A stretch of DNA of 64,000 bases from an uncultured Cohaesibacter sp. (lineage in GTDB: Bacteria > Pseudomonadota > Alphaproteobacteria > Rhizobiales > Cohaesibacteraceae): assembly GCF_963678225.1 (NCBI RefSeq), contig NZ_OY782764.1:2795001-2859000 (forward strand), given 5' to 3'. The notes under the pieces are model-generated. The model had not been told where the DNA came from, ran no database searches, and saw only the letters and a list, made by a program, of their open reading frames with translations. The position numbers and the translations under genes were made by a program. Positions 15,291 through 31,006 of this stretch are shown in pieces; position 1 is the stretch's first letter; each line of letters opens with the position of its first letter.

Positions 15291-15361
15291 GGAGGTCTGA
15301 CGGTGCCTTCTTCTGGTGGTCCAAGCCTGTTCAATGGCCGCTCAGGACCCATCGAACGATT

Positions 15362-15410
15362 CTAAAACGAAAAACGGTTAGCGAAGAGAGAAAACTCCCA
15401 CGCTAACCGC
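15362..15410 (-). terminator. Rho-independent terminator of the TRAP transporter operon
   Basis: Read on the minus strand, a 9-bp stem (15401-15409 with 15375-15383) is followed by TTTTTCGTTTT. It lies 17 bp past the large-permease stop and would end most transcripts before the GntR genes. Confidence 0.8.
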
Positions 15411-15426
15411 CATGAATTGCAGATCC

Positions 15427-16731: not shown

Positions 16732-17288
16732 TACAGCTGGTCCTCGATATCTGCATCATTATGTAGGGTTTCGCCGCCCACTGTACGGAGCACCTGCGCG
16801 AACATCTGAAGTGTGAAAACCAGAGCGCCAACAACCATGAAGCCTTGGGGAATCCACAAAGGAGTTCGAACGACAGAAGAGGAGGTCGAGCCTCTCTTGA
16901 GCGAGAGCATGGCCATATCGCTGACCGCATAGAGAATAACCAAAGCGATGGCCAGCCCGATCAGGCAGGCAACGGCATCGAGAACTTGCTGACCCTTGGG
17001 GGGAAGATAGTCATGAAGGGCGGTAACGCGGACATGGCCGCCAGCTTTCAGGGTTGCACCTGCTGAGAGAAAGATGCAGGCCCCCATCATGTAGGCTGCA
17101 AAATCCCAGCTGAAGGGGAGGCTGGTACCAAGAAAGTTACGCGCTGTGATTTCTGCGGCGATAAGTGCAAAAATGGCAACCAGACAAACGCCACCAATTA
17201 TGCAGGAGTAACTGCTAATTTGATCGATCGGGTTTGTGATTGCCGAAAATTTCCGATCCTCGGACACTGGCATGGTATGTACCTGCAA
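16731..17288 (-). CDS. TRAP transporter small permease (DctQ-type)
   Basis: The 185-residue protein has four hydrophobic segments separated by short loops and the typical PFSWDFAAYMMGACIFLSAGATLKAGGHVRV segment, in which a conserved charged GGHVRV precedes the third helix. It joins the large permease in the inner membrane. The start is ATG at 17288, with an alternative ATG five codons later. A GC-rich hairpin separates it from the binding-protein gene upstream. Confidence 0.88.
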   Translation of the reverse strand: MQVHTMPVSEDRKFSAITNPIDQISSYSCIIGGVCLVAIFALIAAEITARNFLGTSLPFSWDFAAYMMGACIFLSAGATLKAGGHVRVTALHDYLPPKGQQVLDAVACLIGLAIALVILYAVSDMAMLSLKRGSTSSSVVRTPLWIPQGFMVVGALVFTLQMFAQVLRTVGGETLHNDADIEDQL

Positions 17289-17354
17289 ACGGCGTTAGCC
17301 AGAATAGTCTGTAGAGTAAACACAGGTCTCGTGTCTGGCAAAAGAAGTGGAAAG

Positions 17355-17380
17355 GCCGCCCCGAACGGGAGGGGCGGCCC
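17355..17380 (-). terminator. Intercistronic hairpin between TRAP binding-protein and small-permease genes
   Basis: A 9-bp GC stem (17355-17363 with 17372-17380) closes an 8-nt loop, with TTT just after it in the minus-strand direction. It probably acts as a leaky terminator or 3'-end protector, so the periplasmic binding protein is made in excess over the permeases. Confidence 0.55.
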
Positions 17381-17386
17381 GTTTGA

Positions 17387-18367
17387 TCAGTTGCGAACGG
17401 CCAGATAGGCGTCGATATAGTCTGCGGCTTCAGGAACACGTTCCTTGAACTCGTCCCACAGCGGTTGGGCGCGCTTGATCAACTCGGCTTTCAGCTCGGC
17501 AGATGGAGCGGTAACGGACATGCCGTTTTCTTCCAGAATAGCGATCTTCTTTTGGTCTTCTGCACGGCTTGCTTTCCAGAAGTCGCCTTCGAGCTTGATG
17601 GCAGCCTTTTCAATGGCTTCTTGATGCTCTTCGGACAGATCGTTCCAAGCATCAAGGTTCACGGTGACAAGGTTGCTGGATGCCTGCCAGTTGAAGGTGC
17701 TCATGTTGCCCATGAATTCCCAGAAGGATCCGTCAACGCCTGAAGAGGAAGAGGTGGTCACACCTTCAATGGTGCCTGCTGCGAGGGAAGGAACCACTTC
17801 ACCCCAAGGCATCTGAAGGGGAGCTGCACCCAGTGCGGTGAAGAAGTTCTGGCCGTTTGCGTCAACAACGCGCAGTTTGACACCGTCCAGATCTTCGATC
17901 GTCTTGATCGGGTTCTTGGTGTAAACAGCCTGACCGGGCCATGGAACCATGTAGAGCAGCTTCTGGTTCATGGATTCGGCCACTTCTTCAATCTTCGGGC
18001 GGAAATATTTGTGCAGCAGCGCAAGGTCGGACATGGTCGGAGCGAGGTAAGGCAGGCTTTCGATACCCAGTACCGGCGCTTCGCCAACCTGCTGGCTCAT
18101 CAGGATGTCGGCGATCGGAACCAGACCATCACGAACAGCGGCCATGCCTTCTGGGCCCTTGATGCCAAGAGAGCCGCCCGCATGCACGGTGATCACGACT
18201 TCACCGTCGGTGACTTCCTTGACCGTGTCGGCAAATGTGATGGCGTCCTGGGTGTGGAAGTTGCCCTGCGGCCAGACCACAGACATGTCCCAGTTGGTTT
18301 CTGCGTAAGCTTGAGCAGCAAAGGCAATGGTGCCAGCTGCGAGAAGTGCGCGGAATGCTGATTTCAT
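17387..18367 (-). CDS. TRAP transporter periplasmic substrate-binding protein (DctP-type)
   Basis: The ATG at 18367 was chosen because it starts a clean signal peptide (MKSAFRALLAAGTIAFAAQAYA, cleaved near residue 22), with GAGGG upstream; the longer frame would add 48 unrelated residues. The 326-residue protein has the DctP fold, including EVTDGEVVITVHAGGSLGIKGPE, the conserved Arg in LDGVKLRVVDANG that normally holds a substrate carboxylate, and GVTTSSSSGVDGSFWEF. It delivers an organic acid, probably an amino-acid derivative given the neighbours, to the TRAP permeases. It is the first gene of the operon, downstream of the shared 31-bp element. Confidence 0.92.
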   Translation of the reverse strand: MKSAFRALLAAGTIAFAAQAYAETNWDMSVVWPQGNFHTQDAITFADTVKEVTDGEVVITVHAGGSLGIKGPEGMAAVRDGLVPIADILMSQQVGEAPVLGIESLPYLAPTMSDLALLHKYFRPKIEEVAESMNQKLLYMVPWPGQAVYTKNPIKTIEDLDGVKLRVVDANGQNFFTALGAAPLQMPWGEVVPSLAAGTIEGVTTSSSSGVDGSFWEFMGNMSTFNWQASSNLVTVNLDAWNDLSEEHQEAIEKAAIKLEGDFWKASRAEDQKKIAILEENGMSVTAPSAELKAELIKRAQPLWDEFKERVPEAADYIDAYLAVRN

Positions 18368-18808
18368 CGGTATGTAACCCTCATCGTTCGGTGTAGCGAT
18401 TGCGTTATTTTTATATGGCAGAAATCGGCTTGCAATTTCGGTATGCCACCTGTATGTCAAAACAGGAGCGACCATACGATGGAAAATTAGGCAACGCAAG
18501 AGGGTGCACAATATTTGAGCTGATTTTTTGGGTCGCTCGTGAAAAAAGGTCCATTAGTCTAAGAATGAAACCAGCATGTTTCTGCGCTTTTGGCGCTAAA
18601 CTGGGACGTTTGAATTTGCTCTGTATATTGCCTAGCAAGAAGAAGGCCATTTTGGAGGGGCAAATTAAAATGGCCTGCGGTTGGCTGTCAGGCTCCGTCC
18701 GGTCAGGCTCGCCGTGCATTCAAAAGGCTGCATACTTGAGTGCAATGCACAGGAAGCCATTGAAACAAATTCCCTTTTGGGGAAAGGCAAAACAAAAGGA
18801 AGCTTTGC
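18368..18808. other. Divergent regulatory region between the TRAP operon and the aminotransferase-ridA operon
   Basis: This 441-bp gap separates the minus-strand TRAP operon from the plus-strand aminotransferase. It contains the 31-bp shared element near its left end. Near 18717-18752 is a TGCATT...AATGCA inverted repeat with unclear meaning. I see no gene in it. Confidence 0.5.
18429..18459. promoter_or_regulatory. 31-bp element shared with the pxpB promoter
   Basis: On the minus strand this reads TGACATACAGGTGGCATACC followed by GAAATTGCAAG, matching 8411-8441 at 26 of 31 positions with no gap. It starts about 60 bp upstream of the TRAP binding-protein ATG and includes a TTGACA-like hexamer at its upstream edge (18457-18462). 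It is a candidate operator or combined promoter-operator. Confidence 0.6.
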
Positions 18809-20026
18809 ATGTCGTTGGAAACAAAATTCAGGATGCTCGGCACAGACAATGCTCCGGGGCAGGAAGTCCGGCAGGGGTTGGATGGCCTTGGAGACCTGAT
18901 GCGGGGAGGCACTCTGGAAGGGCGCCCCGTCGACTTTTCTCACGGGGATGTGGATGCCCACGAGCCCACGCCAGGCTCTTTCGAGCTGTTCGCAGAGGGG
19001 TTTGGCAAGGGAGCTGCGCAGGCCTATACCGAATATCGCGGCGATATTGGTATCCGCGAGCAGGTGGCCGCCGACTTGGCTACCTTCACTGGCGCGCCGG
19101 TTGATGCTGCAGACGGGCTTATCATCACGCCGGGCACGCAAGGTGCGCTGTTTTTGGCCATGGCCGCAACGGTTGGACGTGGCGACAAGGTCGCCATCGT
19201 GCAGCCGGACTATTTTGCCAACCGCAAGCTGGTTCAATTCTTCGATGGGGAAATGATGCCGGTACAGCTGCACTATACCAAGGCAGAAGAGGGGACGGCC
19301 GGTCTGGATCTCGGTGAATTGGAAGAGGCATTCAAGGCAGGGGCTAAGCTGTTCCTCTTCTCCAATCCGAACAACCCGGCCGGTGTGGTCTATTCAAAGG
19401 AAGAGATCGCAAGCATTGCTACATTGGCCGAGCGCTACGGTGCGACGGTGATTGTTGACCAGCTCTATTCGCGTCTGCGCTACAGCAATGTCGCTTATAC
19501 CCATTTGCGCGCCGAGCCGATTGATCCGGAAAATGTCATCACCATCATGGGCCCATCCAAGACCGAATCCCTTTCCGGCTTCCGCCTTGGGGTTGCTTAT
19601 GGCTCAAGCAAAATCATCACGCGCATGGAGAAGCTACAGGCAATCGTCAGCCTGCGGGCTGCTGGCTACAGTCAGGCTATCTTGCGTGGCTGGTTCCATG
19701 AACCCGCCGGCTGGATGGAAGACCGTATCGCCCAGCATGAAGCTATCCGTGACGATTTGCTCAAACTTTTCCGCGCCATCGAAGGTGTCAGCGCCCGCAC
19801 GCCGCAGGCTGGCAGCTATCTGTTCCCTGCGTTACCCGATCTGTCTGTCTCTCCAGCTGATTTCGTGAAAATCTTGCGGCTTCAGGCGGGCGTCATCGTT
19901 ACGCCAGGCACCGAATTCAGCCCGCATACGGTCAACAGCATCCGCCTCAACTTTTCTCAGGATCACGCAGCTTCGGTAGCTGCGGTTGAACGTCTGGCAA
20001 CGCTCGTCGAAAGGTATCGCACATGA
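18809..20026 (+). CDS. Class I/II PLP-dependent aminotransferase
   Basis: The 405-residue protein has the fold-type I aminotransferase landmarks: EYRGDIGIREQVAADL, TPGTQGALFL for the cofactor phosphate, FSNPNNPAGVVYS, and MGPSKTESLSGFRLG with PLP lysine K251 and the arginine that holds the phosphate. A C-terminal arginine in NSIRLNFSQD would bind the substrate carboxylate. AAGGAAG lies 8 nt before the ATG. It overlaps the RidA gene by 4 nt. RidA proteins clear reactive enamine/imine intermediates, so this pair fits degradation of an amino acid via an unstable imine. Specificity is unknown. Confidence 0.88.
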   Translation: MSLETKFRMLGTDNAPGQEVRQGLDGLGDLMRGGTLEGRPVDFSHGDVDAHEPTPGSFELFAEGFGKGAAQAYTEYRGDIGIREQVAADLATFTGAPVDAADGLIITPGTQGALFLAMAATVGRGDKVAIVQPDYFANRKLVQFFDGEMMPVQLHYTKAEEGTAGLDLGELEEAFKAGAKLFLFSNPNNPAGVVYSKEEIASIATLAERYGATVIVDQLYSRLRYSNVAYTHLRAEPIDPENVITIMGPSKTESLSGFRLGVAYGSSKIITRMEKLQAIVSLRAAGYSQAILRGWFHEPAGWMEDRIAQHEAIRDDLLKLFRAIEGVSARTPQAGSYLFPALPDLSVSPADFVKILRLQAGVIVTPGTEFSPHTVNSIRLNFSQDHAASVAAVERLATLVERYRT

Positions 20027-20454
20027 GCTGTCCAACAACAGATGCCCCGATCCCGCAGGGCAATTATATTGCCGCCAAACGCCATGGGGATCTTGTCTTC
20101 ACCTCTGGTATGACGCCGCGCAAGGCTGGCGTGCTGCAGCTGGAAGGGCCGGTCAAGGCGCAAGTGCCGATCGAGAGTTACAAGGATGCTGTGATTCTGG
20201 CGTGTTCAAATGCACTGATCGCTGCACGCAACCAGCTTGCCGAGGGAGAAGCGGTCGCAGCCATTCTGAGCATGACAGTGTTCGTCGCCGCAGAGGAAGG
20301 CTTCACCGCCCATTCCAAACTGGCCGATTTCGCGTCTGCCTATCTTGCCGAAACGCTCGGGCCTCAGGGGATTGGCAGCCGCGCAGCAGTTGGTGTCGCC
20401 ACCTTGCCCGGCAATGCGCCGGTCGAGATCCAGCTAGTCGTCGCGATTGGCTGA
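20023..20454 (+). CDS. RidA-family (YjgF/YER057c/UK114) protein
   Basis: The 143-residue protein shows the RidA pattern: an N-terminal PQGNYIAAKRHGDLVFTSGM, and IGSRAAVGVATLPGNAPVEIQLVVAIG with the conserved Arg that binds imine carboxylates. Family members hydrolyse 2-imino acids released by PLP enzymes or oxidases, protecting PLP enzymes in the cytosol. It is translationally coupled to the aminotransferase (ATGA overlap), which makes a direct functional link likely. Its length and N-terminus fit the Rid sub-families outside classical RidA, so a specialised substrate is possible. Confidence 0.9.
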   Translation: MSCPTTDAPIPQGNYIAAKRHGDLVFTSGMTPRKAGVLQLEGPVKAQVPIESYKDAVILACSNALIAARNQLAEGEAVAAILSMTVFVAAEEGFTAHSKLADFASAYLAETLGPQGIGSRAAVGVATLPGNAPVEIQLVVAIG

Positions 20455-20996
20455 CTATTGAAAAATGAGCCTCCGCGTCGCCTATGTGCGATGCGGGCCA
20501 AGATCATATAAGCCCGTTGCCTTGGCATCCTTTGCCCGGGGCTGCGGGCTTTCTATTTAGGTCTTTACTGCGACAGGCTGAGTCTGAGTAGGCTTGAATA
20601 TACTATCCGGCTTTGATCAAAAATTAGCCATCGTCTCGACCGAATTTTATCATGCGAAAGTCTATAGATTTTTCGATTATGTCATAAATATCTGAAAAAA
20701 TTATATAATTTACCATTTTGTACGTCGTTTCAGAGTGCGAGAAAACAGATGTTTATTTGATCTTGAAAAGATGAATGCATCAAATCATAGTTTTGATGCA
20801 TCATAATTCCAATTGAATATATCGCAGCTAAAAGACCATCGCCCCGACCAACCCTTCCAGACACGTCCATTCGGGCATGCAATTAACGCAATCGCGGACA
20901 TCCACATTGGATGATGTACCGAGCGGGATCTGCCCTCGGAAGCCTATCGGTCCCCTCGTACGATCAGTTGATTAAAGAATATCAGGAATCTGCATC
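20455..20996. other. AT-rich regulatory gap upstream of the class III aminotransferase operon
   Basis: This 542-bp region holds a weak terminator for the ridA operon (AAGCCCG 20510-20516 pairing with CGGGCTT 20545-20551, then TTCTATTT) and the ATGCAT operator-promoter described separately. The stretch 20560-20760 is strongly AT-rich. There is no credible gene. Confidence 0.5.
20763..20801 (+). promoter_or_regulatory. GntR-type operator and promoter of the aminotransferase/ABC operon
   Basis: ATGCATCAAA at 20775-20784 and its exact reverse complement at 20792-20801 form a 10-bp inverted repeat. The ATGCAT cores are 21 bp apart. A TTGAAA (20763-20768) and a CATAGT (20786-20791) spaced 17 bp make a -35/-10 pair, with the two half-sites flanking the -10. 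The same geometry recurs at 26879-26920 in front of the local GntR gene. Confidence 0.72.
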
Positions 20997-22346
20997 ATGA
21001 GCATTACGCCCAATTCAGTTGAAGCACGCGATATCGCCTACCATATGCACCCAGCCGTTAATTTGCGCAAGTTCGAAGAAAAGGGCGGCCTCGTCATTGA
21101 AAGCGGAGATGGCGTCTATGTCTACGACAACACCGGCAAACGCTATATCGAAGGGCTGGCCGGTCTTTGGTCTGTCGCTGTTGGCTTCGGAGAGAAGCGG
21201 CTGGTTGAAGCGGCCACCGCTCAGCTGCAAAAGCTGCCTTACTATCACTCCTTCAACTACAAGACCAACGGTCCGTCGGTTGATCTGGCAGAGCTGCTCA
21301 TCAGCATCGCGCCGGTTCCCATGTCCAAGGTGCATTTCACCTCTTCGGGGTCAGAGGCCAACGATCTTGTGGCCAAGATGGTCTGGTATCGCTCCAACGC
21401 ATTGGGCAAGCCGGAGAAGAAAAAGATCATCGGACGCATCAAGGGCTATCACGGCGTGACGATTGCTGCGGGTTCCATCACAGGCATTCCGGCAAACCAC
21501 ACAAGCTTCGACTTGCCGCTTGATCGCATGGTCCATACATCCTGCCCGTCCTTCCCCCATTTCGGTGAAGACGGCGAGAGCGAAGAGGCCTTCACTGCAC
21601 GCATGCTGAAGGATCTGGAAGACCTGATCGTCAAGGAAGGGCCGGAAACCATCGCCGCCTTCTGGGGCGAGCCGGTCATGGGTGCAGGTGGCGTGCTCAC
21701 CCCACCAAAGGGCTATTGGGAAGGCGTTCAGGCCATCCTGAAAAAATATGACATTCTGCTGGTGGCCGATGAGGTGATCTGTGGCTTTGGCCGTACCGGC
21801 AAGATGTTCGCCTGCGAAACCTATGACATCAAACCCGATGTGCTGGTCATTTCCAAACAGCTGTCATCATCCTACATGCCTCTGTCGGCCATCATGATGA
21901 ATGACAATTTCTATCAGCCGATTGCCGATGAATCCGACAAGATCGGGGTCTTTGCCCATGGTTTCACGGCCTCCGGGCATCCGGTGGCAACCGCCGTTGG
22001 CCTTGAGAATGTCAAGATCATCATCGAGCGTGATCTCGTCGGCAATGCGGCTCGCCTTGAAAAGACCTTCCTTGATGGCCTTGCAAAACTGGCCGAGCAT
22101 CCGCTCGTGGATTCCTCTCGCGGCATCGGCCTCATCGGGGCGCTTGAGCTGACCCCATGGGAGCAGGAAGGGGCCGGAGCGGCAGCACTGGCTGTTGCAG
22201 AAGCCATTCAGGAAGAAGGCTGCATCATCCGCAACATTGGCGAAGCCATCTGCTTCTGCCCACCACTGATCATCACCGCAGAGCAAATTGAAGAAATGTT
22301 CGCAATCGTTCTGCGTGCGCTGAACAAGGTTGCCGAGACGCGTTAA
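20997..22346 (+). CDS. Class III (omega) aminotransferase
   Basis: The 449-residue protein aligns with omega-amino acid:pyruvate and putrescine/polyamine transaminases: YIEGLAGLWSVAVGFGEKRLVEA, FTSSGSEANDLVAKMVWY, KGYHGVTIAAGSITG, LLVADEVICGFGRTGKMFAC and VISKQLSSSYMPLSA with PLP lysine K287. It would remove a terminal amino group from an imported amine or omega-amino acid, making an aldehyde. It leads an operon with a polyamine-type ABC importer behind the ATGCAT operator. The stop is 92 bp from the binding-protein gene. Substrate could be a polyamine, beta-alanine, or an aminated sugar or amino alcohol. Confidence 0.88.
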   Translation: MSITPNSVEARDIAYHMHPAVNLRKFEEKGGLVIESGDGVYVYDNTGKRYIEGLAGLWSVAVGFGEKRLVEAATAQLQKLPYYHSFNYKTNGPSVDLAELLISIAPVPMSKVHFTSSGSEANDLVAKMVWYRSNALGKPEKKKIIGRIKGYHGVTIAAGSITGIPANHTSFDLPLDRMVHTSCPSFPHFGEDGESEEAFTARMLKDLEDLIVKEGPETIAAFWGEPVMGAGGVLTPPKGYWEGVQAILKKYDILLVADEVICGFGRTGKMFACETYDIKPDVLVISKQLSSSYMPLSAIMMNDNFYQPIADESDKIGVFAHGFTASGHPVATAVGLENVKIIIERDLVGNAARLEKTFLDGLAKLAEHPLVDSSRGIGLIGALELTPWEQEGAGAAALAVAEAIQEEGCIIRNIGEAICFCPPLIITAEQIEEMFAIVLRALNKVAETR

Positions 22347-22438
22347 GCGCGTCTTAGGCAGCCCAGGATTTCACCCTTAAAGATAGATCGGGACAACCCG
22401 GCGTTTTTAAAGCAATCAACCTACCGGAGATACTAATC

Positions 22439-23476
22439 ATGAAAAAATGGGCACTATTGGCGTCTGTTCTTGCTCTTGGCGCCATGTCAAGCGCGGCTCA
22501 GGCCCGCGACCTGACCATCACCAGCTGGGGCGGTAGCTACCAGACTGCGCAACAGGATATCTATTTCAAGCCATTCTCTGAAAAGGTTGGCAAGCCGGTT
22601 CTGGACGAAAGCTGGGACGGCGGCTATGGCGTGCTTCAGGCCAAGGTGAAAGCCGGTGCTCCCAACTGGGATGCCGTGCAGGTGGAAGCCGAAGAGCTGG
22701 CCCTTGGCTGCGACGACGGTATCTTCGAAATGATCGACTGGGACAAGATGGGGGGCGAAGATGCCTTCATGCCAGCCGCTGTCAGCGATTGCGGCGTGGG
22801 TACCATCGTTTGGTCTCTGGCTCTGGCCTATGATGGCAACAAGCTCAGCGATGGGCCTAAAAACTGGGCTGACTTCTGGGATGTCAAAAAATTCCCGGGC
22901 AAACGCGCTTTGCGCAAAGGCGCCAAATATACCCTTGAGTTTGCCCTCTTGGCAGATGGCGTTCCGGCTGATGAGCTCTATGATGTTCTCTCCACCCCGG
23001 AAGGCATCGACCGGGCCTTTGCCAAACTTGACGAGTTGAAACCGGATCTGGTCTGGTGGGAATCCGGCGCCCAGCCGCTGCAGTTCCTCGCTTCTGGCGA
23101 AGTGGCTATGGCCGCATCCTATAATGGCCGTATCACCAGCATCAACAAGACAGAAGGCAAGAATTTCAAGATCGTATGGCCTGGCTCCATCTATGCTGTC
23201 GACAGCTGGGTGATCCTCAAGGATGCCGAAAACAAGGAACTTGCTCAGGATTTCATCGCCTTTGCCAGCCAGCCGGAGAATATGGCCAAGCTGCCTGAAT
23301 ATATCGCTTACGGGCTGACAAATAAGGAAGCTTCCAGCATGGTACCGGATGAATATAAGGCAGACGTGCCAACCACGCCGGAAAACCTGGAAGAGGCACT
23401 CTCGCTGAATATCGATTTCTGGATCGATAATTCCGAAGCCCTGAACCAGCGCTTCAACGCCTGGCTCGCCCAATAA
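22439..23476 (+). CDS. ABC transporter periplasmic binding protein, polyamine/opine type (PotF-like)
   Basis: The 345-residue protein begins with a signal peptide (MKKWALLASVLALGAMSSAAQA, cleaved near residue 22) followed by RDLTITSWGGSYQTAQQDIY, typical of the spermidine/putrescine binding-protein family 1. ALRKGAKYTLEFALLADGV and NGRITSINKTEGKNF are also family-like. It captures the substrate in the periplasm for the downstream ATPase and two permeases. A good AACCTACCGGAGA precedes the ATG. A hairpin follows the stop, which would favour higher levels of this protein than of the membrane parts. Confidence 0.9.
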   Translation: MKKWALLASVLALGAMSSAAQARDLTITSWGGSYQTAQQDIYFKPFSEKVGKPVLDESWDGGYGVLQAKVKAGAPNWDAVQVEAEELALGCDDGIFEMIDWDKMGGEDAFMPAAVSDCGVGTIVWSLALAYDGNKLSDGPKNWADFWDVKKFPGKRALRKGAKYTLEFALLADGVPADELYDVLSTPEGIDRAFAKLDELKPDLVWWESGAQPLQFLASGEVAMAASYNGRITSINKTEGKNFKIVWPGSIYAVDSWVILKDAENKELAQDFIAFASQPENMAKLPEYIAYGLTNKEASSMVPDEYKADVPTTPENLEEALSLNIDFWIDNSEALNQRFNAWLAQ

Positions 23477-23486
23477 GGCAAAAGGC

Positions 23487-23520
23487 AAGCGCGTGGAGCA
23501 AAGCTCCGCTTCATGCGCTT
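23487..23520 (+). repeat. Intercistronic hairpin after the binding-protein gene
   Basis: Nested pairing (AAGCGC 23487-23492 with GCGCTT 23515-23520; GGAGC 23495-23499 with GCTCC 23503-23507) sits 11 bp after the stop. It lacks a T run and probably stabilises the upstream mRNA. Confidence 0.4.
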
Positions 23521-23654
23521 CCCCCACGCATTCTCATCCGTTTGTTCACGAGAAGCGACAGCTTTCCCGAGCGGATGCGTTTGCCTTGTGATTTCAGGCG
23601 TAGGATAGACCGGCTTGTCCCGAGACTGTCTGGTCATACGTTGCAGGAAGAAAA

Positions 23655-24728
23655 ATGACCGAGCAGCCATATATTGAATTCCGAAAAGTCAGCAAAGTCT
23701 TTGGGTCCCTGACCGTTGTTGACCATCTCGATCTGACCATCAACAAGGGCGAGTTCGTTTCGCTTCTTGGTCCATCCGGATCGGGCAAGACAACCTTGCT
23801 CATGATGCTGGCCGGCTTTGAAGATCCCACCGCAGGGGACATTCTGCTCGGTGGCTCTGTGCTGAACCGCACCCCGCCTTACAAGCGCAATATGGGGGTT
23901 GTGTTCCAGAATTACGCCCTGTTCCCCCATCTCTCTGTGGCTGAGAATATTGCCTTTCCGCTCAAGAGGAGAGGCGTCGCCAAGGCCGAGATCGCAGAGC
24001 GGGTCAATCGCGTGTTGGAAATGGTGCAGTTGCCCGACCAATCCGAAAAACTTCCCAGCCAGCTGTCCGGTGGTCAGCAGCAGCGTGTGGCACTGGCCCG
24101 TACGCTGGTCTTTGAGCCCAACGTGGTCTTGATGGATGAACCCCTAGGCGCGCTCGACAAAAATCTGCGCGAGCAAATGCAATATGACATTCGCCGTCTG
24201 CACCGGGATCTGGGCCTGACGATCGTCTTTGTTACACACGATCAGTCTGAAGCCCTGACCATGAGCGATCGCATCGCCGTGTTCAACCATGGCAAGATCG
24301 AACAGATCGGCACGCCACAGGATATCTATGACCGGCCAAATACGCATTTTGTCGCCGAATTTATTGGCGAGACCAATCTCATTCCCGTCAAATATCGCGA
24401 AGGGGATCACTCCCGTTGTTCGGTGACCACAAATACGGGCAAGGATCTGGAAGTAACCAGCCCCGTGACCCTGTTCCGCGGAACAGAAGTATTGCTCTCC
24501 TTGCGGCCGGAACATATCGAGCTGGGTGATAGTGCCGAAGGGCTGGAGAATGCCATGCCCGCGCGCATCAGCGATGTGGTCTATCAGGGCGACCACCTGC
24601 GAGCCGATATCGAGGTGGATGGCACAAAGCTGGTGGCACGCCTTGGCCGCCATTTGCCGCCGCATGATCCCGGCGACGAGGTCTTCATCGGTTTCCGGCC
24701 TCAAAATGCACGGGTGATCCTGCCATGA
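23655..24728 (+). CDS. ABC transporter ATP-binding protein, polyamine type (PotA/PotG-like)
   Basis: The 357-residue ATPase has Walker A GPSGSGKTT (about 43-51), Q-loop FQNYALFPHLSV, signature LSGGQQQRVALARTL, Walker B VVLMDEPLGALD, an H-loop in VTHDQSEA, and a C-terminal TOBE-type regulatory domain (about 270-357). This arrangement is standard for the spermidine/putrescine and iron(III) importer class. The ATG follows GCAGGAAGAAAA. The stop overlaps the first permease start by 4 nt. Confidence 0.94.
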   Translation: MTEQPYIEFRKVSKVFGSLTVVDHLDLTINKGEFVSLLGPSGSGKTTLLMMLAGFEDPTAGDILLGGSVLNRTPPYKRNMGVVFQNYALFPHLSVAENIAFPLKRRGVAKAEIAERVNRVLEMVQLPDQSEKLPSQLSGGQQQRVALARTLVFEPNVVLMDEPLGALDKNLREQMQYDIRRLHRDLGLTIVFVTHDQSEALTMSDRIAVFNHGKIEQIGTPQDIYDRPNTHFVAEFIGETNLIPVKYREGDHSRCSVTTNTGKDLEVTSPVTLFRGTEVLLSLRPEHIELGDSAEGLENAMPARISDVVYQGDHLRADIEVDGTKLVARLGRHLPPHDPGDEVFIGFRPQNARVILP

Positions 24729-25900
24729 CTGCAAGACTAGGCCCACATCTCAAAGCCTCGGCGCTTGTGCTTCCGTTGGTGCTGTTTCTGGCCCTGTTTT
24801 TTGTCTGGCCGATCATCGCCATGCTCAAACAGTCCATCTCCGACCCCGTCGTGCACAATACATTGAGCCAAACCAGCGCCATCGCCGCCCAATGGAACGG
24901 CAAGGCACCGGTTCCTGCTGCCCTGCAGGACGCACTTGTGGCCGATATTCGCGCCACGACGGATCGGCAGGAAATGGGCGCGGTCGTACGGCGCCTCAAC
25001 AGCGCCAAATCCGGCTTCAGAACGCTTATGCGCAAGACGCGCCGCGCCATTCGAAAAACCGATGGCCCGATCAATCTGGGCGAAGTCGACAAGCGCTGGA
25101 ACGAGGTGGCATGGTGGCACACCATTGCGCAGGCATCTTCGCCCTATACGGACCGTTATCTGCTTGCAGCGCTTGATTATGGCCGAGACAAACATAATCA
25201 GATTGTGGCTCTGCCCGAAGATGCCTCCGCCAACAGAACCATTCTGGCGCGGACATTCGTCATCAGCCTGTCTGTGATGCTGTCCTGTCTGGCAATTGGG
25301 TTGCCGTTTGCCATGGTCATCGCTTCCACCTCTGGCTGGTTGCGCAACGTGTTGCTGGCCGCGGTGTTGCTGCCGCTCTGGACCTCGCTTCTGGTACGCA
25401 CCACGGCGTGGTTCATCATTTTGCAGAATAACGGTCTCATCAACTCGGCCCTTCAGGCACTGGGGATCACCGATCAACCAATCCCGCTTATTTTCGAACG
25501 CACCGGTGTCATCATCGCCATGACGCACGTATTGCTGCCCTTCATGGTGCTGCCCATCTATAGCGTGCTCTTGTCCATGCCGGGTAATCTCATGCAGGCG
25601 GCGTCTTCGCTGGGTGCACACCCGATCGTTGCCTTTCTCAAGGTCATGTTGCCTCTCTCGGCAAGGGGCATTGCCTCTGGCTCGCTGTTGGTCTTCATGT
25701 CTTCGATTGGCTACTACATCACACCGGCTCTCATCGGTGGTCCGTCTGACCAGATGATTTCCTCCGTTATTGCCTTCTATGCAACGGAATCGGCGAACTG
25801 GGGCATGGCCGGTGCGCTCGGTCTGGTTCTGCTCTCGATCACCTTGCTGCTCTATGTCGTCTATGGACGTCTTTCGGCTGAAAAGAAGGGAGTCGCGTAA
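24725..25900 (+). CDS. ABC transporter permease (PotB/PotH-like) with a long first periplasmic loop
   Basis: The 391-residue permease has a first transmembrane segment at about 14-34, then a hydrophilic stretch of roughly 135 residues (38-173), and then the usual five-helix permease core beginning TFVISLSVMLSC. The cytoplasmic EAA motif appears as QAASSLGAHPIVAFLKVMLPLSARG. Typical PotB/PotH proteins are about 280-300 residues with a much shorter first loop, so the extra domain is unusual, although similar extended permeases occur in this transporter class. It may contact the binding protein. It overlaps both neighbouring genes (ATGA and TAATG). Confidence 0.9.
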   Translation: MTARLGPHLKASALVLPLVLFLALFFVWPIIAMLKQSISDPVVHNTLSQTSAIAAQWNGKAPVPAALQDALVADIRATTDRQEMGAVVRRLNSAKSGFRTLMRKTRRAIRKTDGPINLGEVDKRWNEVAWWHTIAQASSPYTDRYLLAALDYGRDKHNQIVALPEDASANRTILARTFVISLSVMLSCLAIGLPFAMVIASTSGWLRNVLLAAVLLPLWTSLLVRTTAWFIILQNNGLINSALQALGITDQPIPLIFERTGVIIAMTHVLLPFMVLPIYSVLLSMPGNLMQAASSLGAHPIVAFLKVMLPLSARGIASGSLLVFMSSIGYYITPALIGGPSDQMISSVIAFYATESANWGMAGALGLVLLSITLLLYVVYGRLSAEKKGVA

Positions 25901-26706
25901 TGTTCCCAACAGTCAAAAAAGCCTTTGGCATTCTTGTCATGTTGTTTCTGATTGCGCCACTGGCAGCCATTTTGCCTCTGGCCTTCACCTCCAGTGCGCT
26001 GCTCACTTATCCGGTGCCAGAGTGGTCCATGCGCTGGTTGACCGAGCTGGTGACTGAGCCGGTCTGGCGCCGCTCCATCGCCAACAGTCTGATCATCGGT
26101 GGCGGAACGACAGTGCTCGCGACCACCCTTGGCACGTTGGCCGCTCTGGGGCTGCGGCGTTATTCCTCGCTGTTCGCCGGAGTGCTCAAGACCTTCTTCT
26201 TGCTGCCGATGGTGGTGCCTGCCGTGGTGCTTGGTGTGGGCATGCAGGTCTTCTTCGTCCATGTGGGCATCGCCAACTCCTATCTGGGTGTGATCGTGGC
26301 GCATACAGTGATCGCCATGCCGTTCGTGTATGTCAGCGTGTCAGGCTCGTTGGCGGGTATCGACCCTCGTGTCGAGTTGGCCGCCGCCAGTCTTGGAGCG
26401 TCGCCCTCCACGGTGCTGCGCACGACGACCTTGCCGCTCAGCCTGTCCGGTATCCTGTCTGGTGCTGTGATGGCCTTTGCGACATCGCTCGATGAGGTGA
26501 TCCTGACGCTCTTCATCGCAGGGCCTCATCAGCGCACACTGGCCAGACAGATGTTCTCCACCATTCGTGAGAATGTGTCTCCGGCCATTGCGGCTGCGGC
26601 CTTTGTCTTCATTGTCGGCACCATTCTTGTTGCCTGCCTGATCATGCTGGTGCGTATGCGCACCGGTGGCACCATGCAGAAGACTGTTGGGCCTGGCATC
26701 TCATAA
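25900..26706 (+). CDS. ABC transporter permease (PotC/PotI-like)
   Basis: The 268-residue membrane protein has six hydrophobic segments and the EAA loop ELAAASLGASPSTVLRTTTLPLSLSG. FATSLDEVILTLFIAGPHQRTLARQMF is the strongly conserved C-terminal segment of PotC-type permeases. It is the last gene of the transporter operon, starting at TAATG with the preceding permease. A hairpin with a T tract follows. Confidence 0.93.
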   Translation: MFPTVKKAFGILVMLFLIAPLAAILPLAFTSSALLTYPVPEWSMRWLTELVTEPVWRRSIANSLIIGGGTTVLATTLGTLAALGLRRYSSLFAGVLKTFFLLPMVVPAVVLGVGMQVFFVHVGIANSYLGVIVAHTVIAMPFVYVSVSGSLAGIDPRVELAAASLGASPSTVLRTTTLPLSLSGILSGAVMAFATSLDEVILTLFIAGPHQRTLARQMFSTIRENVSPAIAAAAFVFIVGTILVACLIMLVRMRTGGTMQKTVGPGIS

Positions 26707-26712
26707 GGGTCT

Positions 26713-26759
26713 GTGGCGCCTCGGGGGCATGCCTCCGGTGTGCCACGCCCATTCTTTTT
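26713..26759 (+). terminator. Probable terminator of the ABC transporter operon
   Basis: GTGGC (26713-26717) pairs with GCCAC (26742-26746), enclosing an inner 6-bp stem (26722-26727 with 26732-26737) around a CATG loop. ATTCTTTTT follows a few bases later. The internal loop makes it imperfect. Confidence 0.5.
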
Positions 26760-26878
26760 CGTGGTGAAAATCAACAAGGGCAGAAGCCAAATCGGTGCGC
26801 ATGAAGCATCCGGCTCCTGCTTGAGGGAAGTCTGCCTTGGCTGGTCGCAGACCGGAGAGGGCGCAGTGACAATTGTGT

Positions 26879-26920
26879 TTGATTAGGATGATGCATCAAG
26901 ATATAAATAAGATGCATCAT
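26879..26920 (+). promoter_or_regulatory. GntR-type operator and promoter of the GntR/kinase/lyase operon
   Basis: ATGATGCATC (26888-26897) and GATGCATCAT (26911-26920) form a 10-bp inverted repeat, with ATGCAT cores 21 bp apart. A promoter TTGATT (26879-26884), a 17-bp spacer and TATAAA (26902-26907) lie within it, so the half-sites flank the -10 just as at 20763-20801. This predicts autoregulation by the GntR protein encoded next. Confidence 0.75.
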
Positions 26921-27009
26921 ATATGGAGAGTGCCTTCATTCACGGCGTGGATCGCCAACGGAGTGATCTCCATACTACGGGAAACACTGTAACTGGATAG
27001 AGTTTGAAC

Positions 27010-27672
27010 ATGCAATCGCAACAAGAAGGCAAAAAGCTCTCTGATATGGTCTATGACAGGCTGTGCGAGGCTCTGCTCAAAGGGCACTATCTTCCGGGCA
27101 AGCGCTTGAAGATCCGGGAACTGGCTGAAGAGATGCAGACCAGCGTGACGCCAGTGCGCGATGCCATTTTGCGTTTGCACTATGACGAGGCGGTAATCTA
27201 CAACTCGCCGCGCTCTATCCATGTCACCTCTCTCAGCCGCGCGCGCTATGAGGAAATCCGCAAAATTCGCCTGCCACTGGAAGTAATGAGCGCCAAGGCG
27301 GCTGCGCAATATGCCACCCTGTCCGATGTCAGCGCGCTTGAAAGCCTGATCGCGGAGAATGAAGAAGCCATGGCCGAAGGCGATGGCGTTCGCGGCGCGG
27401 CTCTCAATCAGCAATTTCATTTCAAGTTGGTCGAAATGTCAGCCATGCCGGTGCTCTATGGAGTATTGCGCCGTCTTTGGCTGCAAACCAGTCCATTGAT
27501 TGCTCATGGCTATCTTGAAGCCGGGCGGGCGATGATCGATCATCATTACGAGGTTCTCGAAGCGGTGCGCAACAAGGATGTCGAGGCCGTCGCCATTGCT
27601 GTTGAGCGCGATCTGACTTTGGGAGGCGCGCCGTTGGTACGCATGCTCGACAAGGTGTCGGACGGCACTTGA
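27010..27672 (+). CDS. GntR-family transcriptional regulator, FCD domain
   Basis: The 220-residue regulator starts at ATG 27010 (a TTG two codons earlier is possible). Its winged helix spans about 10-75 (YDRLCEALLKGHYLPGKRLK, ELAEEMQTSVTPVRDAILRLH) and an FCD helical domain follows, with NQQFHFKLVEMS and HGYLEAGRAMIDHHYEVLEA carrying likely metal-binding histidines. The ATGCAT operator sits 90 bp upstream, and the same operator precedes the ABC operon. It is therefore the probable regulator of both operons, most likely a repressor released by the transported compound or a breakdown product. Confidence 0.9.
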   Translation: MQSQQEGKKLSDMVYDRLCEALLKGHYLPGKRLKIRELAEEMQTSVTPVRDAILRLHYDEAVIYNSPRSIHVTSLSRARYEEIRKIRLPLEVMSAKAAAQYATLSDVSALESLIAENEEAMAEGDGVRGAALNQQFHFKLVEMSAMPVLYGVLRRLWLQTSPLIAHGYLEAGRAMIDHHYEVLEAVRNKDVEAVAIAVERDLTLGGAPLVRMLDKVSDGT

Positions 27673-27815: not shown

Positions 27816-28871
27816 ATGACCACAGTAGACCCAGATATCGGATCGCTTCTGACGACGCCTCCACCCGCGATTTCACAGCAGGAGGCGTGCGCGATTGCCA
27901 AAACGACCTTCGGTCTCACCGGTAGTCTCAAGCAGTTGACCTCTGAGCGTGATGTTAATTTCTTGCTCCGCGCGGATGACGGCAAAGGCTATGTGCTCAA
28001 ATTCACCAACGAGATGGAGCCGGAAGAGCAAACCGATTTCCAGACCAAGGCTCTGCTACATCTGGAAAAAACGGCACCATCCCTGCGCGTGCCACGGGCC
28101 GTACCGACGCTTTCGGGAGAGCTGTGGCTGGAGCTGGAAAACGGCTCCCGCGCGCGGCTCCTAAGCTATGTTGAAGGAAGCCTCAGCTCGACGCTTCCCA
28201 AATCGCCAACTCTGGCCGATGCGGTCGCTACTGCGGGGGCCAAACTGGTCAATGCCCTGGAAGGGTTCGAGCATCCTGCTGCCAATCACTATCTGATCTG
28301 GGATATCAAGAATGCCGGAACCCTGCGCTCCATGCTGCCCCTGATCGAGGATAGCGAACAGCGGGGACTGGTCGAAAGGGTGATTGATGGATTTGATGAA
28401 AGAATAGCACCACGCCTTGATGACTTGCCATGGCAGGTCATTCACGGTGATCTCAATCCGCAAAATCTGGTGACCGAAGATGAGACTGATCTGGAAATCG
28501 GCGTGCTGGATTTTGGTGACATGGTGCGTTCGCCGCGCATTTGCGAACTGGCGATCGCAGCGGGCTATCAGCTAGACTTTTCCGATGTCGAGGCATCCAT
28601 CGTGCAGTTCCTTGCCTGCTGGCACAGCATTTGTCCGCTGACCCGTGCCGAGGTTGAGCTGTCTGCCGATTTCATTGCTGCCCGTTTTGCTACCATCATC
28701 ACGGTCGCCAACTGGCGTGCTCAACGCTATCCGGAAAACAGGGCCTATATCACCCGCAATCTGGCGTTGGCTTCCAATGGGATCAGGCATCTGACCAATC
28801 TGGATACCAAAGGGCTCTATGAGGTTCTGGCTGATAGAGCCGAGGCCAAACTGCATAAGGAGATTTCATGA
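27816..28871 (+). CDS. APH-family small-molecule kinase (hydroxylysine/choline kinase-like)
   Basis: The 351-residue protein has the aminoglycoside phosphotransferase/choline kinase fold. The Brenner-type catalytic loop is HGDLNPQNLV (H210, D212, N217) and the metal-binding motif is LDFGDM (D232). A glycine-poor nucleotide loop lies around DVNFLLRADDGKGYVLKFTN. Its partner is the next gene, an AGXT2L-like class III PLP enzyme overlapping it by 4 nt. In animals, hydroxylysine kinase and phospho-lyases form such a pair, and related bacterial enzymes are adjacent or fused. It therefore probably phosphorylates the hydroxyl of an amino alcohol for later elimination. Antibiotic inactivation is unlikely in this context. 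GGAGGAGA precedes the ATG. Confidence 0.82.
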   Translation: MTTVDPDIGSLLTTPPPAISQQEACAIAKTTFGLTGSLKQLTSERDVNFLLRADDGKGYVLKFTNEMEPEEQTDFQTKALLHLEKTAPSLRVPRAVPTLSGELWLELENGSRARLLSYVEGSLSSTLPKSPTLADAVATAGAKLVNALEGFEHPAANHYLIWDIKNAGTLRSMLPLIEDSEQRGLVERVIDGFDERIAPRLDDLPWQVIHGDLNPQNLVTEDETDLEIGVLDFGDMVRSPRICELAIAAGYQLDFSDVEASIVQFLACWHSICPLTRAEVELSADFIAARFATIITVANWRAQRYPENRAYITRNLALASNGIRHLTNLDTKGLYEVLADRAEAKLHKEIS

Positions 28872-30175
28872 TGTCGCAAGACCAGTCCATGGCAAATGCC
28901 TTCGTGCCGGGGCAGGCGATCCTGTCTGCGGGCGATGAAGCTCTTTTGCAACGCCGCACCGACACGCTTGGGCCTGCCTATCGCCTATTCTATGAAGAGC
29001 CCTTCCATCCGGTGCGAGGGGAAGGGGTGTGGCTCTATGATGAAGATGGTACGGCCTATCTTGACGCCTACAACAATGTTGCCTGTGTGGGCCATTGCCA
29101 TCCGCGCGTGGTGGAAGCCATGGCTCGACAGGCCTCTATGCTGACCACCCACACACGCTATTTGCAGAATAATATTGTCGATTTTGCAGAAGATTTTCTG
29201 GCGAGTTTTCCCGATCCCCTGTCTCACATCATGTTTACCTGCACAGGCTCGGAAGCCAACGATCTGGCGCTGCGCATTGCTCGCGTAAAAACCGGCGGTA
29301 CCGGCGTCATCGTGACGGAGAATGCCTATCACGGCGTTACCATCGCCTTGGCTGCCATGTCGCCTTCTCTGGGAGCTGGAGCGCCCAAGGATGACAATGT
29401 CTTCACCATTCCTGCTCCGACCGGACAGCATGGCGAGCAGGAAGGCGAGGTCATGCGTGCTAACGTGGAAAAGGCACTCGCCGCCATGGCGGAACGAGGC
29501 ATCAAACCCGCAGCTCTCTATGTCGACACCATCTTTTCTTCCGATGGCATTTTCAGTCATCCCAAAGGGTTTCTCAAACCCGCGGTTGACGCCTTTCGTG
29601 CAGCCGGTGGGCTGTTTGTCGCCGACGAGGTGCAGCCCGGCTTTGCTCGCACAGGCGAGGAGATGTGGGGCTTCCTGAGACATGGATTAGTGCCGGATAT
29701 GGTCTCCATGGGCAAGCCGATGGGCAATGGCTATCCTGTTGCTGCATTGGTCGTGCAGCCTGATGTCGTGGCCGAGTTCGGTGAACGCACCCGCTACTTC
29801 AATACCTTTGGCGGCAACACAACGGCCATCGCCACAGCGCAGGCCGTTTGGGATATCATTCACGATGAGAGCCTGCAGAAAAAGACGCTTGAAACCGGCA
29901 ATGCCTTTCGTACCGAGTTGGAGATCCTTGCCAGAGAAGGGGATGTCATCTGCGATATCCGCGGTAGTGGCTTGTTTATCGGTGTACAGATTGCCGGAGA
30001 TGATCCAAGGGGGCGGACTGCCCGCCTCGTCAATGCACTGAAGAAAAAGCATATTCTCATCAGTGCGTCTGGCCCGGGCGGTGATGTTCTCAAAATCCGC
30101 CCGCCGCTGGCCTTTGGCTCCGATGCGCTGGACTTCTTCATGAGCGGGCTACGAGAGGCCATCAAGGACATCTAG
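28868..30175 (+). CDS. Class III PLP enzyme resembling AGXT2L-type phospho-lyases
   Basis: The 435-residue protein has a class III aminotransferase fold with PLP lysine K283 (MVSMGKPMGNGYPV). The segments YNNVACVGHCHPRVVEAM, THTRYLQNNIVDFAE and CTGSEANDLALRIAR closely match the ethanolamine-phosphate and 5-phosphohydroxylysine phospho-lyase branch (NTRYLHDNIVDYA-like) rather than ordinary omega-transaminases. Such enzymes eliminate ammonia and phosphate from an O-phosphorylated amino alcohol to give an aldehyde. Overlap with the kinase gene supports this. An alternative is a plain transaminase. The next gene, an SDR, could reduce or oxidise the aldehyde. Confidence 0.82.
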   Translation: MMSQDQSMANAFVPGQAILSAGDEALLQRRTDTLGPAYRLFYEEPFHPVRGEGVWLYDEDGTAYLDAYNNVACVGHCHPRVVEAMARQASMLTTHTRYLQNNIVDFAEDFLASFPDPLSHIMFTCTGSEANDLALRIARVKTGGTGVIVTENAYHGVTIALAAMSPSLGAGAPKDDNVFTIPAPTGQHGEQEGEVMRANVEKALAAMAERGIKPAALYVDTIFSSDGIFSHPKGFLKPAVDAFRAAGGLFVADEVQPGFARTGEEMWGFLRHGLVPDMVSMGKPMGNGYPVAALVVQPDVVAEFGERTRYFNTFGGNTTAIATAQAVWDIIHDESLQKKTLETGNAFRTELEILAREGDVICDIRGSGLFIGVQIAGDDPRGRTARLVNALKKKHILISASGPGGDVLKIRPPLAFGSDALDFFMSGLREAIKDI

Positions 30176-30259
30176 CCCGAGGGGCGGGCGACTGGCCCGT
30201 TTCCGTTTCAATTAAACGATAATGCACAAGTGCGCAGCTTCCATTGGAAAGAACCGGAT

Positions 30260-31006
30260 ATGAGTTCGAACGAGAGAAAAACCCTTTTGATTACCGGTGC
30301 CAGCCGCGGCATCGGTCACGCCACCGTAAAGCGCTTCTCTGATGCTGGGTGGCGGGTGCTCAGTTGTTCCCGACAGCCCTTTGATGAAAAATGTCCCTGG
30401 CCGATGGGCAAGGAAAACCATATTCAGGTGGACCTCAGCGATCTGGCAAGCATCGGCAGGGCAATCGGCGTCGTCAAGGAACGCCTGAAATCGGAAGGCG
30501 GCAGGCTACATGCGCTGATCAACAATGCGGCCATCAGCCCCAAGGACGAAAACGGCCAGCGGCTTGATAGTCTGCGAACCCCTCCGCATTTGTGGCACAC
30601 CGTTTTCACGGTCAACTTTGTTGCGCCCATTATGCTGGCCAATGGCCTGATTGAAGAGCTACGGGCAGCAAAGGGGTCTATCGTCAATGTTACGTCCATT
30701 GCAGGCATGCGCGTTCATCCCTTTGCCGGTACGGCCTACGCCACGTCAAAGGCGGCACTGTCCACATTGACACGCGAAATGGCCGCTGATTTTGGCCCGC
30801 ACGGTATTCGGGTAAACGCCATCGCACCTGGAGAAATCGACACCTCGATCCTGTCGCCGGGGACCGAGAAGATTGTCGAGACCATTCCGCTGCGACGTCT
30901 GGGGGAGCCTTCCGAGGTGGCCGAAACCGTCTTCTATCTATGCTCGGACGCCAGTTCCTATGTTTCAGGCACGGAAATTCACGTCAATGGCGGCCAGCAT
31001 GTCTGA
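30260..31006 (+). CDS. Short-chain dehydrogenase/reductase (SDR)
   Basis: The 248-residue protein has the classical SDR Rossmann motif TGASRGIG (12-19), NNAA (88-91) and the catalytic set N119, S146, Y160 (TAYATSKAAL) and K164. IRVNAIAPGEIDTSIL and a SYVSGTEIHVNGGQHV C-terminus are typical. The ATG at 30260 fits the family N-terminus; a GTG 30 nt earlier would add ten unrelated residues. It sits 84 bp after the phospho-lyase gene and probably converts the aldehyde or an alcohol in that pathway with NAD(P)(H). Confidence 0.9.
   Translation: MSSNERKTLLITGASRGIGHATVKRFSDAGWRVLSCSRQPFDEKCPWPMGKENHIQVDLSDLASIGRAIGVVKERLKSEGGRLHALINNAAISPKDENGQRLDSLRTPPHLWHTVFTVNFVAPIMLANGLIEELRAAKGSIVNVTSIAGMRVHPFAGTAYATSKAALSTLTREMAADFGPHGIRVNAIAPGEIDTSILSPGTEKIVETIPLRRLGEPSEVAETVFYLCSDASSYVSGTEIHVNGGQHV

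What the first reader, a model, noticed from the sequence alone, without database searches (positions are those of the whole stretch)
20763..26920. Two promoters with identical operator geometry define a GntR regulon
At 20763-20801 and 26879-26920 the sequence shows TTGAWW, a 17-bp spacer and a -10 element, with an ATGCAT half-site on each side of the -10. The half-site cores are exactly 21 bp apart in both cases, and the left core starts exactly 11 bp before the -10 start in both. Each site is also a 10-bp inverted repeat. One site controls the class III aminotransferase/ABC importer, the other the GntR gene and the kinase/phospho-lyase/SDR genes. The match in spacing is too precise to be chance and predicts a regulator binding both half-sites and blocking RNA polymerase at the -10.
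Basis: seen in the sequence. Interest (0 to 1): 0.75.

Follow-up and report, generated by a model that had tools for sequence, protein, structure and literature searches.

The report
Paired operators of an amine-catabolism repressor
Two promoters in this bacterium carry the same pair of ten-base palindromes, which comparison with relatives shows are very probably docking sites for the neighbouring GntR-type regulator, so the finding is a real and well-conserved but otherwise ordinary kind of gene switch whose exact operator was not found in the papers searched.

Summary
Both promoters have TTGAWW, 17 bp, a -10, and two ATGCAT cores 21 bp apart, the left one starting 11 bp before the -10. The geometry is the same in all 10 promoters of the 5 congeners (of 18 examined) in which the GntR gene was found. 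At that spacing the pair occurs exactly twice in each of those 5 genomes and in none of the other 13.

'Half-site' is wrong. Each core is a complete operator, the palindrome TGATGCATCA. In 79 related loci outside the genus, 57 carry it within about 300 bp upstream of the GntR gene, against 7 for the next commonest palindrome and 4 of 1672 control pieces. None of 88 distinct sites there has a partner at 21 bp. One palindrome suffices elsewhere; the tandem pair bracketing the -10 was seen only in this genus.

Most likely mechanism (inferred): two repressor dimers on one DNA face, two turns apart, block RNA polymerase until an amine-type effector releases them. The effector is unknown; nothing was tested at the bench.

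The parts
20763..20768 (+). -35 element TTGAAA of the aminotransferase/importer promoter
   Evidence: 6 of 6 positions invariant in 5 species
20773..20782 (.). left operator GAATGCATCA (2 mismatches to TGATGCATCA; the same variant in all 5 species)
   Evidence: 10 of 10 invariant
20786..20791 (+). -10 element CATAGT between the operators
   Evidence: 17-bp spacer; invariant in 5 species; only 4 of 6 to consensus
20794..20803 (.). right operator TGATGCATCA
   Evidence: 10 of 10 invariant
20997..22346 (+). class III aminotransferase (PRK06105 subfamily), first gene of operon 1
   Evidence: NCBIfam 733 bits, cut-off 517; best solved relative 5ghf
22439..23476 (+). ABC importer solute-binding protein, PotD/PotF-like
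   Evidence: below equivalog cut-offs
23655..24728 (+). ABC importer ATPase (potA subfamily)
   Evidence: 387.5 bits, cut-off 355.6
24725..25900 (+). ABC importer permease, PotH/PotB-like
   Evidence: below equivalog cut-offs
25900..26706 (+). presumed second ABC importer permease
   Evidence: ORF; position in the operon and conservation with it in 5 species; no domain search was run on it
26879..26884 (+). -35 element TTGATT of the GntR promoter
   Evidence: TTGA invariant in 5 species
26889..26898 (.). left operator TGATGCATCA
   Evidence: 10 of 10 invariant in 5 species; in the gapped alignment the 52 columns before the -35 keep 6
26902..26907 (+). -10 element TATAAA between the operators
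   Evidence: TATAAA, TAGAGT, TATGAT, TATAAT, TGTGAT at the same place in the 5 species
26910..26919 (.). right operator AGATGCATCA
   Evidence: 9 of 10 invariant
27010..27672 (+). GntR-family regulator, HTH plus FCD domain; recognition helix TSVTPVRD
   Evidence: Pfam PF00392 and PF07729
27816..28871 (+). APH-fold small-molecule kinase (like the kinase part of PRK06148)
28868..30175 (+). class III PLP enzyme of the phospho-lyase group
   Evidence: best solved relatives 5g4i phospholyase (1.6e-93) and 6tor ethanolamine-phosphate phospho-lyase (5.4e-84)
30257..31006 (+). short-chain dehydrogenase/reductase
   Evidence: Pfam; homologues of at least 45% identity near the regulator carry the operator within 400 bp upstream in 16 of 20 cases

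Best explanation
The GntR/FCD protein encoded at 27010-27672 is an autoregulated repressor of two operons: aminotransferase plus Pot-like importer, and its own gene plus kinase, phospho-lyase and SDR. Its operator is the single palindrome TGATGCATCA (extended TWTGATGCATCAWA), one dimer per palindrome. In this genus each promoter carries two operators with centres 21 bp (two helical turns) apart, one in the -35/-10 spacer and one over the predicted start site. Two dimers would therefore sit on one face of the DNA around the -10 and exclude RNA polymerase, probably cooperatively. Shown by comparison: the palindrome, the link to this regulator clade, the regulon genes and the fixed geometry. Inferred: binding, repression rather than activation, cooperativity, and release by an amine- or amino-alcohol-related effector.
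For: Geometry identical in 10 of 10 promoters of 5 species. Footprint at the GntR promoter in a gapped alignment: operators 10/10 and 9/10 invariant, between them 3/11, 6 of 52 columns before the -35 and 0 of 42 columns at 26930-26970. Site-to-gene distance varies (121, 121, 121, 120, 88 bp) while the inner spacing does not. Co-occurrence: exactly 2 pairs at this spacing in each of 5 GntR-bearing congeners and 0 in the other 13. Outside the genus: exact palindrome within about 300 bp upstream of the aligned GntR start in 57 of 79 loci, next palindrome 7, control pieces 4 of 1672. It also lies within 400 bp upstream of the target genes: aminotransferase 19 of 24, kinase 31 of 54, SDR 16 of 20; of the operon-internal genes, lyase 0 of 56 and binding protein 0 of 3. 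No 7-of-10 copy at 21 bp in 88 distinct sites. Recognition helix TSVTP: 66 of 88 have the palindrome within 400 bp upstream; other helices 0 of 35 (sums mine). In the window's genome 12 of the 14 other exact 10-mers lie inside called ORFs and none of the 14 has a partner at 21 bp.
Against: No binding or expression data. 20 of 80 loci lack the exact 10-mer within 400 bp upstream of GntR and 10 of 80 lack it in the whole fetched stretch. The TSVT regulators form essentially one clade (100/100), so the helix-operator link is about one evolutionary event and the Fisher p of 5.5e-16 overstates it. The scan that fetched the 80 loci used a peptide pattern including TSVTPVRD, so helix variation inside the clade was under-sampled. 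The left operator of site 1 has two mismatches. Second copies of 8 of 10 or better at other spacings within 60 bp exist at 13 of the 88 outside sites, 9 of them shifted by 7 bp, so 'single' is the rule, not universal. One search suggests weakly that in other genera the operator overlaps the -10 itself, a different arrangement. Two of the 12 10-mers counted as lying in ORFs (L170, L177) sit at the very 5' end of the called ORF, where the start choice is uncertain.
Confidence: 0.85

Rival explanations
1. One reading: the two ATGCAT cores are half-sites of one long operator, bound as a unit by one regulator dimer.
For: Fixed 21-bp spacing in 10 of 10 promoters of the genus.
Against: Each core is a full palindrome; outside the genus 0 of 88 distinct sites have even a 7-of-10 partner at plus or minus 21 bp, and 75 of 88 have no second copy of 8 of 10 or better within 60 bp (difference mine). 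The exact palindrome stands alone between aminotransferase and GntR in, for example, Mesorhizobium.
Confidence: 0.06
2. The same two-operon regulon, but the protein activates transcription, or activates one operon and represses the other.
For: GntR/FCD proteins can act either way (recalled). The aminotransferase promoter has a weak -10 (CATAGT, 4 of 6) and a longer conserved block.
Against: Operators lie in the -35/-10 spacer and over the predicted start, where bound protein normally blocks polymerase (positions; the rule is recalled).
Confidence: 0.1
3. The palindromes are sites of another regulator, and the GntR gene is a bystander.
For: No binding data; 10 of 80 loci lack the exact palindrome.
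Against: The palindrome follows this GntR clade across genera with different neighbours and operon layouts, and related GntR clades tend to have different upstream palindromes of the same frame.
Confidence: 0.05

Closest known systems
FadR subfamily of GntR regulators (Suvorova et al. 2015, PMC4494728; abstract and sections 5, 10, 16, 17 read, plus a passage search)
   Same: N-terminal GntR HTH plus FCD domain; short palindromic operator with TG...CA ends; Arg at HTH position 28 and G at the matching site position; paired sites at constant distance in divergons are described there as probably cooperative.
   Different: Operator TGAT-GC-ATCA departs from the consensus TKGT/ACMA (A for G at the third position). 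HTH position 38, which contacts G as Arg in FadR and AraR, is Val here. The paired sites here serve a single promoter, not a divergent gene pair.
BioR of Paracoccus and Brucella (PMC4554459, passages seen)
   Same: Alphaproteobacterial GntR protein with an unusual palindrome and two tandem boxes before some bio operons, one box at its own gene.
   Different: Different palindrome (TTATMKATAA as given in PMC4494728) and different genes (biotin).
McbR of E. coli, PDB 4p9f
   Same: Closest solved GntR structure by sequence (E 1.6e-19).
   Different: Distant; operator and role were not compared here.
Kinase/phospho-lyase pair: PRK06148/PRK06149 fusion proteins and ethanolamine-phosphate phospho-lyase (PDB 6tor), phospholyase 5g4i
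   Same: APH-type kinase beside a class III PLP lyase; strong sequence matches.
   Different: Two separate genes here; substrate untested; the NCBIfam whole-protein cut-offs (1128 and 973 bits for models of about 1000 positions) are not reached by the separate proteins.

Membership tests
GntR family, FadR (FCD) subfamily | GntR HTH followed by FCD domain | tested here: met
   PF00392 48.5 bits (cut-off 27) and PF07729 71.1 bits (cut-off 24.3)
GntR family, FadR (FCD) subfamily | Operator of TKGT-N2/3-ACMA type (common, not universal: BioR and NanR are named exceptions in PMC4494728) | tested here: not met
   TGAT-GC-ATCA: frame and TG/CA ends agree, but the third and eighth bases differ. Membership is claimed from the protein domains; the operator is a variant.
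GntR family, FadR (FCD) subfamily | Arg at HTH position 28 contacting G/C | tested here: met
   Residue present: R36 of the protein, 14 residues before R50 as FadR Arg35 and Arg49 are; mapping by eye; the contact itself is not shown
GntR family, FadR (FCD) subfamily | Arg at HTH position 38 contacting G | tested here: not met
   Val46 here; TSVTPVR in 80 of 80 fetched loci (the fetch pattern favoured this)
Named equivalogs (PRK11414, PhnR, NanR, PdhR, LldR) | NCBIfam whole-protein cut-off | tested here: not met
   Best is PRK11414 with 92.4 bits against a cut-off of 225
Autoregulated local repressor | Operator at its own promoter and at neighbouring operons | tested here: met
Autoregulated local repressor | Binds the operator, represses, released by effector | not testable with these tools
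   needs protein and expression work
Ethanolamine-phosphate / hydroxylysine-phosphate phospho-lyase pathway | Kinase plus class III PLP lyase | tested here: met
Ethanolamine-phosphate / hydroxylysine-phosphate phospho-lyase pathway | Substrate identity | not testable with these tools
   no assay

The most novel reading that the evidence does not exclude
This GntR clade is one arm of a group in which the recognition-helix signature predicts the operator within one fixed TG-N6-CA frame: TSVTP with TGATGCATCA, xSETP with TGATATATCA, ...MP with TGTGATCACA, ISxTP with TGTTATAACA. The TSV arm would be an undescribed regulon of Alpha- and Betaproteobacteria for breaking down vicinal amino alcohols (for example 2-hydroxyputrescine or hydroxylysine) by import, phosphorylation, phospho-lyase cleavage and transamination. 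In Cohaesibacter the operator has been doubled at two helical turns around the -10 to sharpen the switch.
Probability: 0.4. Interest if true: 0.55.

Novelty: new member of a known kind. Interest (0 to 1): 0.36.

Why it matters
It gives an uncharacterised, widely spread GntR regulator a precise operator and target set that one gel shift can test, and it links a kinase/phospho-lyase/SDR module and a transaminase/importer module, often found apart in other genera, into one regulon. The differences between related clades suggest a simple, testable recognition code in a family whose specificity rules are incomplete.

Tried and rejected
Half-site reading: rejected because single palindromes are the rule outside the genus. 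Larger regulon in this genome: the 14 other exact 10-mers were checked; 12 lie in called ORFs (two of these at the very 5' end), 2 are intergenic without a partner; inexact copies were not searched genome-wide. Structured RNA in the leaders: Rfam at gathering thresholds, 0 matches in 20450-27020. Weak neighbouring half-boxes at 7-12 nt, as in PMC4494728: not tested with a scoring matrix; at the 12 top-ranked offsets of 10 bp or more no site had 8 of 10, but copies shifted by 7 bp occur at some Azospirillum and Microvirga sites. -35 position in other genera: a TTGACA-like hexamer spaced 17 bp from an operator-overlapping TATGAT stood out only modestly and on the minus strand only (z 2.6; 26 of 88 with 4 or more matches); the offsets ranking above it overlap the operator itself.

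Pathway literature: kinase/phospho-lyase paper searches showed nothing on this regulon in their listings (15 of 19 papers listed). Operator literature: GntR with TGATGCATCA, 0 papers; TGATGCATCA anywhere, 33 papers, 30 listed, none on a GntR operator by title or start of abstract; GntR with GATGCATC, 3 papers, not opened; ATGCAT not found in the main text of PMC4494728. Its supplement and the RegPrecise database could not be consulted, so the operator may be listed there. Structure prediction was not run, since it would not decide DNA binding. The helix signatures other than TSVTP were grouped after seeing the palindromes, so they are a hypothesis, not a test.
Full report
What is there. The two sites are as described. 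Written as 31-mers they are GAATGCATCAAATCATAGTTTTGATGCATCA at 20773-20803 and TGATGCATCAAGATATAAATAAGATGCATCA at 26889-26919. Both contain two copies, exact or nearly so, of a 10-bp palindrome, TGATGCATCA, with centres 21 bp apart. The -35 starts 10 bp before the left copy and the -10 starts 13 bp after the start of the left copy, in both. Loose matches ATGCAT-N13-17-ATGCAT are 2 in the window against a shuffled mean of 0.10, and 5 in the genome.

Genes. Operon 1: class III aminotransferase (PRK06105 subfamily), then a Pot-like ABC importer. Operon 2: GntR/FCD regulator, APH-fold kinase, class III PLP enzyme closest to solved phospho-lyases, SDR. There is no exact or one-mismatch palindrome between the regulator and the kinase here, unlike in Azospirillum, so the kinase, lyase and SDR are presumably read from the GntR promoter.

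Conservation in the genus. The window's genome belongs, by inference from a 99% identical locus in Cohaesibacter marisflavi whose contig has the same length as that of G009, to Cohaesibacter. Of 18 congeners (the window's own genome included), the regulator was found in 5 (89-100% identity; one search examined 101 genomes in all). All 5 have both operons and both double sites (for the four others). The tight pattern at 21-bp spacing occurs exactly twice in each of the 5 and in none of the other 13, which have 3 hits at other spacings. A stricter pattern was found in 4 of 101 genomes, all congeners (it misses G009 by one base). Some of the 13 hold homologues of the lyase (42-48%) or the binding protein (52-55%); none of the 12 such loci examined contains the palindrome. 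The GntR promoter shows a clear footprint in a gapped alignment: operators 10/10 and 9/10 invariant, interior 3/11, 6 of 52 columns before the -35, 0 of 42 at 26930-26970; the last stretch before the gene is conserved again, 15 of 39. The aminotransferase promoter is conserved over a longer block, including the left operator's two mismatches, so there the footprint is less informative.

Conservation outside the genus. A scan of named genomes with an alignment of the regulator found 272 relatives and returned the best 80, 79 outside the genus. The exact palindrome is within about 300 bp upstream of the regulator in 57 of 79; the next commonest palindrome in 7; control pieces away from the locus hold it in 4 of 1672. 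It is in the fetched stretch in 69 of 79. It lies within 400 bp upstream of the aminotransferase (19 of 24), kinase (31 of 54) and SDR (16 of 20), but not upstream of the operon-internal lyase (0 of 56) or binding protein (0 of 3). Of the 20 loci without an exact copy within 400 bp of the regulator, 12 are Bosea, Microvirga or Chelatococcus, where the regulator sits inside a longer cluster; in 5 of the 6 Microvirga loci the exact copy lies before the kinase instead. Two are Neisseriaceae with one-mismatch copies. Around 88 distinct exact sites the extended consensus is TWTGATGCATCAWA, and none has a 7-of-10 match at plus or minus 21 bp; 13 of 88 have an 8-of-10 copy at some other spacing within 60 bp, 9 of them shifted by 7 bp. 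Hence one palindrome is a complete operator, and the tandem pair at 21 bp was seen only in this genus.

Recognition helix. In the FadR subfamily the common operator is TKGT/ACMA, and Arg at HTH position 38 contacts G (PMC4494728). Here position 38 is Val and the operator has A for the G of GT; that these two facts belong together is my inference. Across 123 distinct homologues, TSVTP proteins have the palindrome within 400 bp upstream in 66 of 88 and all others in 0 of 35. Glu proteins have TGATATATCA in 3 of 11; proteins with MP have TGTGATCACA in 6 of 8; ISxTP proteins have TGTTATAACA in 4 of 6 (sums mine; one ISETP protein is in two of these groups; the groups were drawn after seeing the palindromes). 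A tree of 70 of these proteins puts the TSVT proteins, except one palindrome-less outlier (L125) and with one TSST member inside, in one clade with 100/100 support. The association therefore amounts to about one event per clade: a lead, not a proven code.

Mechanism. With a -10 at 26902-26907 transcription would start near 26914, inside the right operator; the left operator lies in the -35/-10 spacer. Two dimers two helical turns apart on one face would exclude polymerase. This is inference from position. BioR, another alphaproteobacterial GntR protein, has single boxes at its own gene and tandem boxes at some targets (PMC4554459, passages), a precedent for doubled operators.

Pathway. Kinase plus phospho-lyase suggests breakdown of a vicinal amino alcohol via its phosphate, with the aminotransferase and Pot-like importer pointing to amines. 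In one Microvirga cluster (L066) there are also a family-5 (peptide-type) binding protein, a histone-deacetylase-fold hydrolase, an aldehyde dehydrogenase and an M20 amidase. 2-Hydroxyputrescine, hydroxylysine, ethanolamine and 1-amino-2-propanol are candidate substrates from general knowledge; none was tested.

Verdict. Observation confirmed. Regulon strongly supported by comparison. Half-site reading replaced by tandem complete operators. A new member of a known kind, modest interest; the clade-by-clade operator differences are the most novel part.

Noticed in passing
window 26920-27003 and the same place in L019, L020, L021: The GntR leader has ATGGAG (ATGGAA in L021) and, further down, CTCCAT around a variable stretch, followed by a conserved stretch like GAAACACTGTAACTGGATAGAGTTTG before the start codon, in 4 of 5 species; a possible leader hairpin (seen, not folded).
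   Followed up: partly
window 20755-20833: The aminotransferase promoter is nearly invariant over about 80 bp in 5 species, beyond the operators, including TAATTCCAATTGAATATATCGCAGC downstream (one base differs in G014); with a minus-strand promoter-like hit at 20812-20784, a second promoter or another regulator's site may lie there.
   Followed up: no
L126, L132, L136, L135, L138, L139, L202, L206, L207, L127, L188, L189, L194: Related FCD regulators have other palindromes of the same TG-N6-CA frame upstream (TGATATATCA, TGTGATCACA, TGTTATAACA).
   Followed up: partly
L037, L049, L058, L078, L087: Palindromes overlapping at a 7-bp shift (TGATGCATCATGCATC) in Azospirillum and Microvirga, a different way of doubling the operator.
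   Followed up: no
window 14643-20454: Neighbouring block with a second GntR/FCD regulator, TRAP-type transporter genes (named by eye), a class I aminotransferase (PRK06207) and a Rid-like protein; no TGATGCATCA there even with one mismatch; aminotransferase and Rid gene not found at this place in G014.
   Followed up: no
L066 6308-7354: Histone-deacetylase-fold hydrolase (acetylpolyamine-amidohydrolase-like by recall) in a Microvirga version of the cluster.
   Followed up: no
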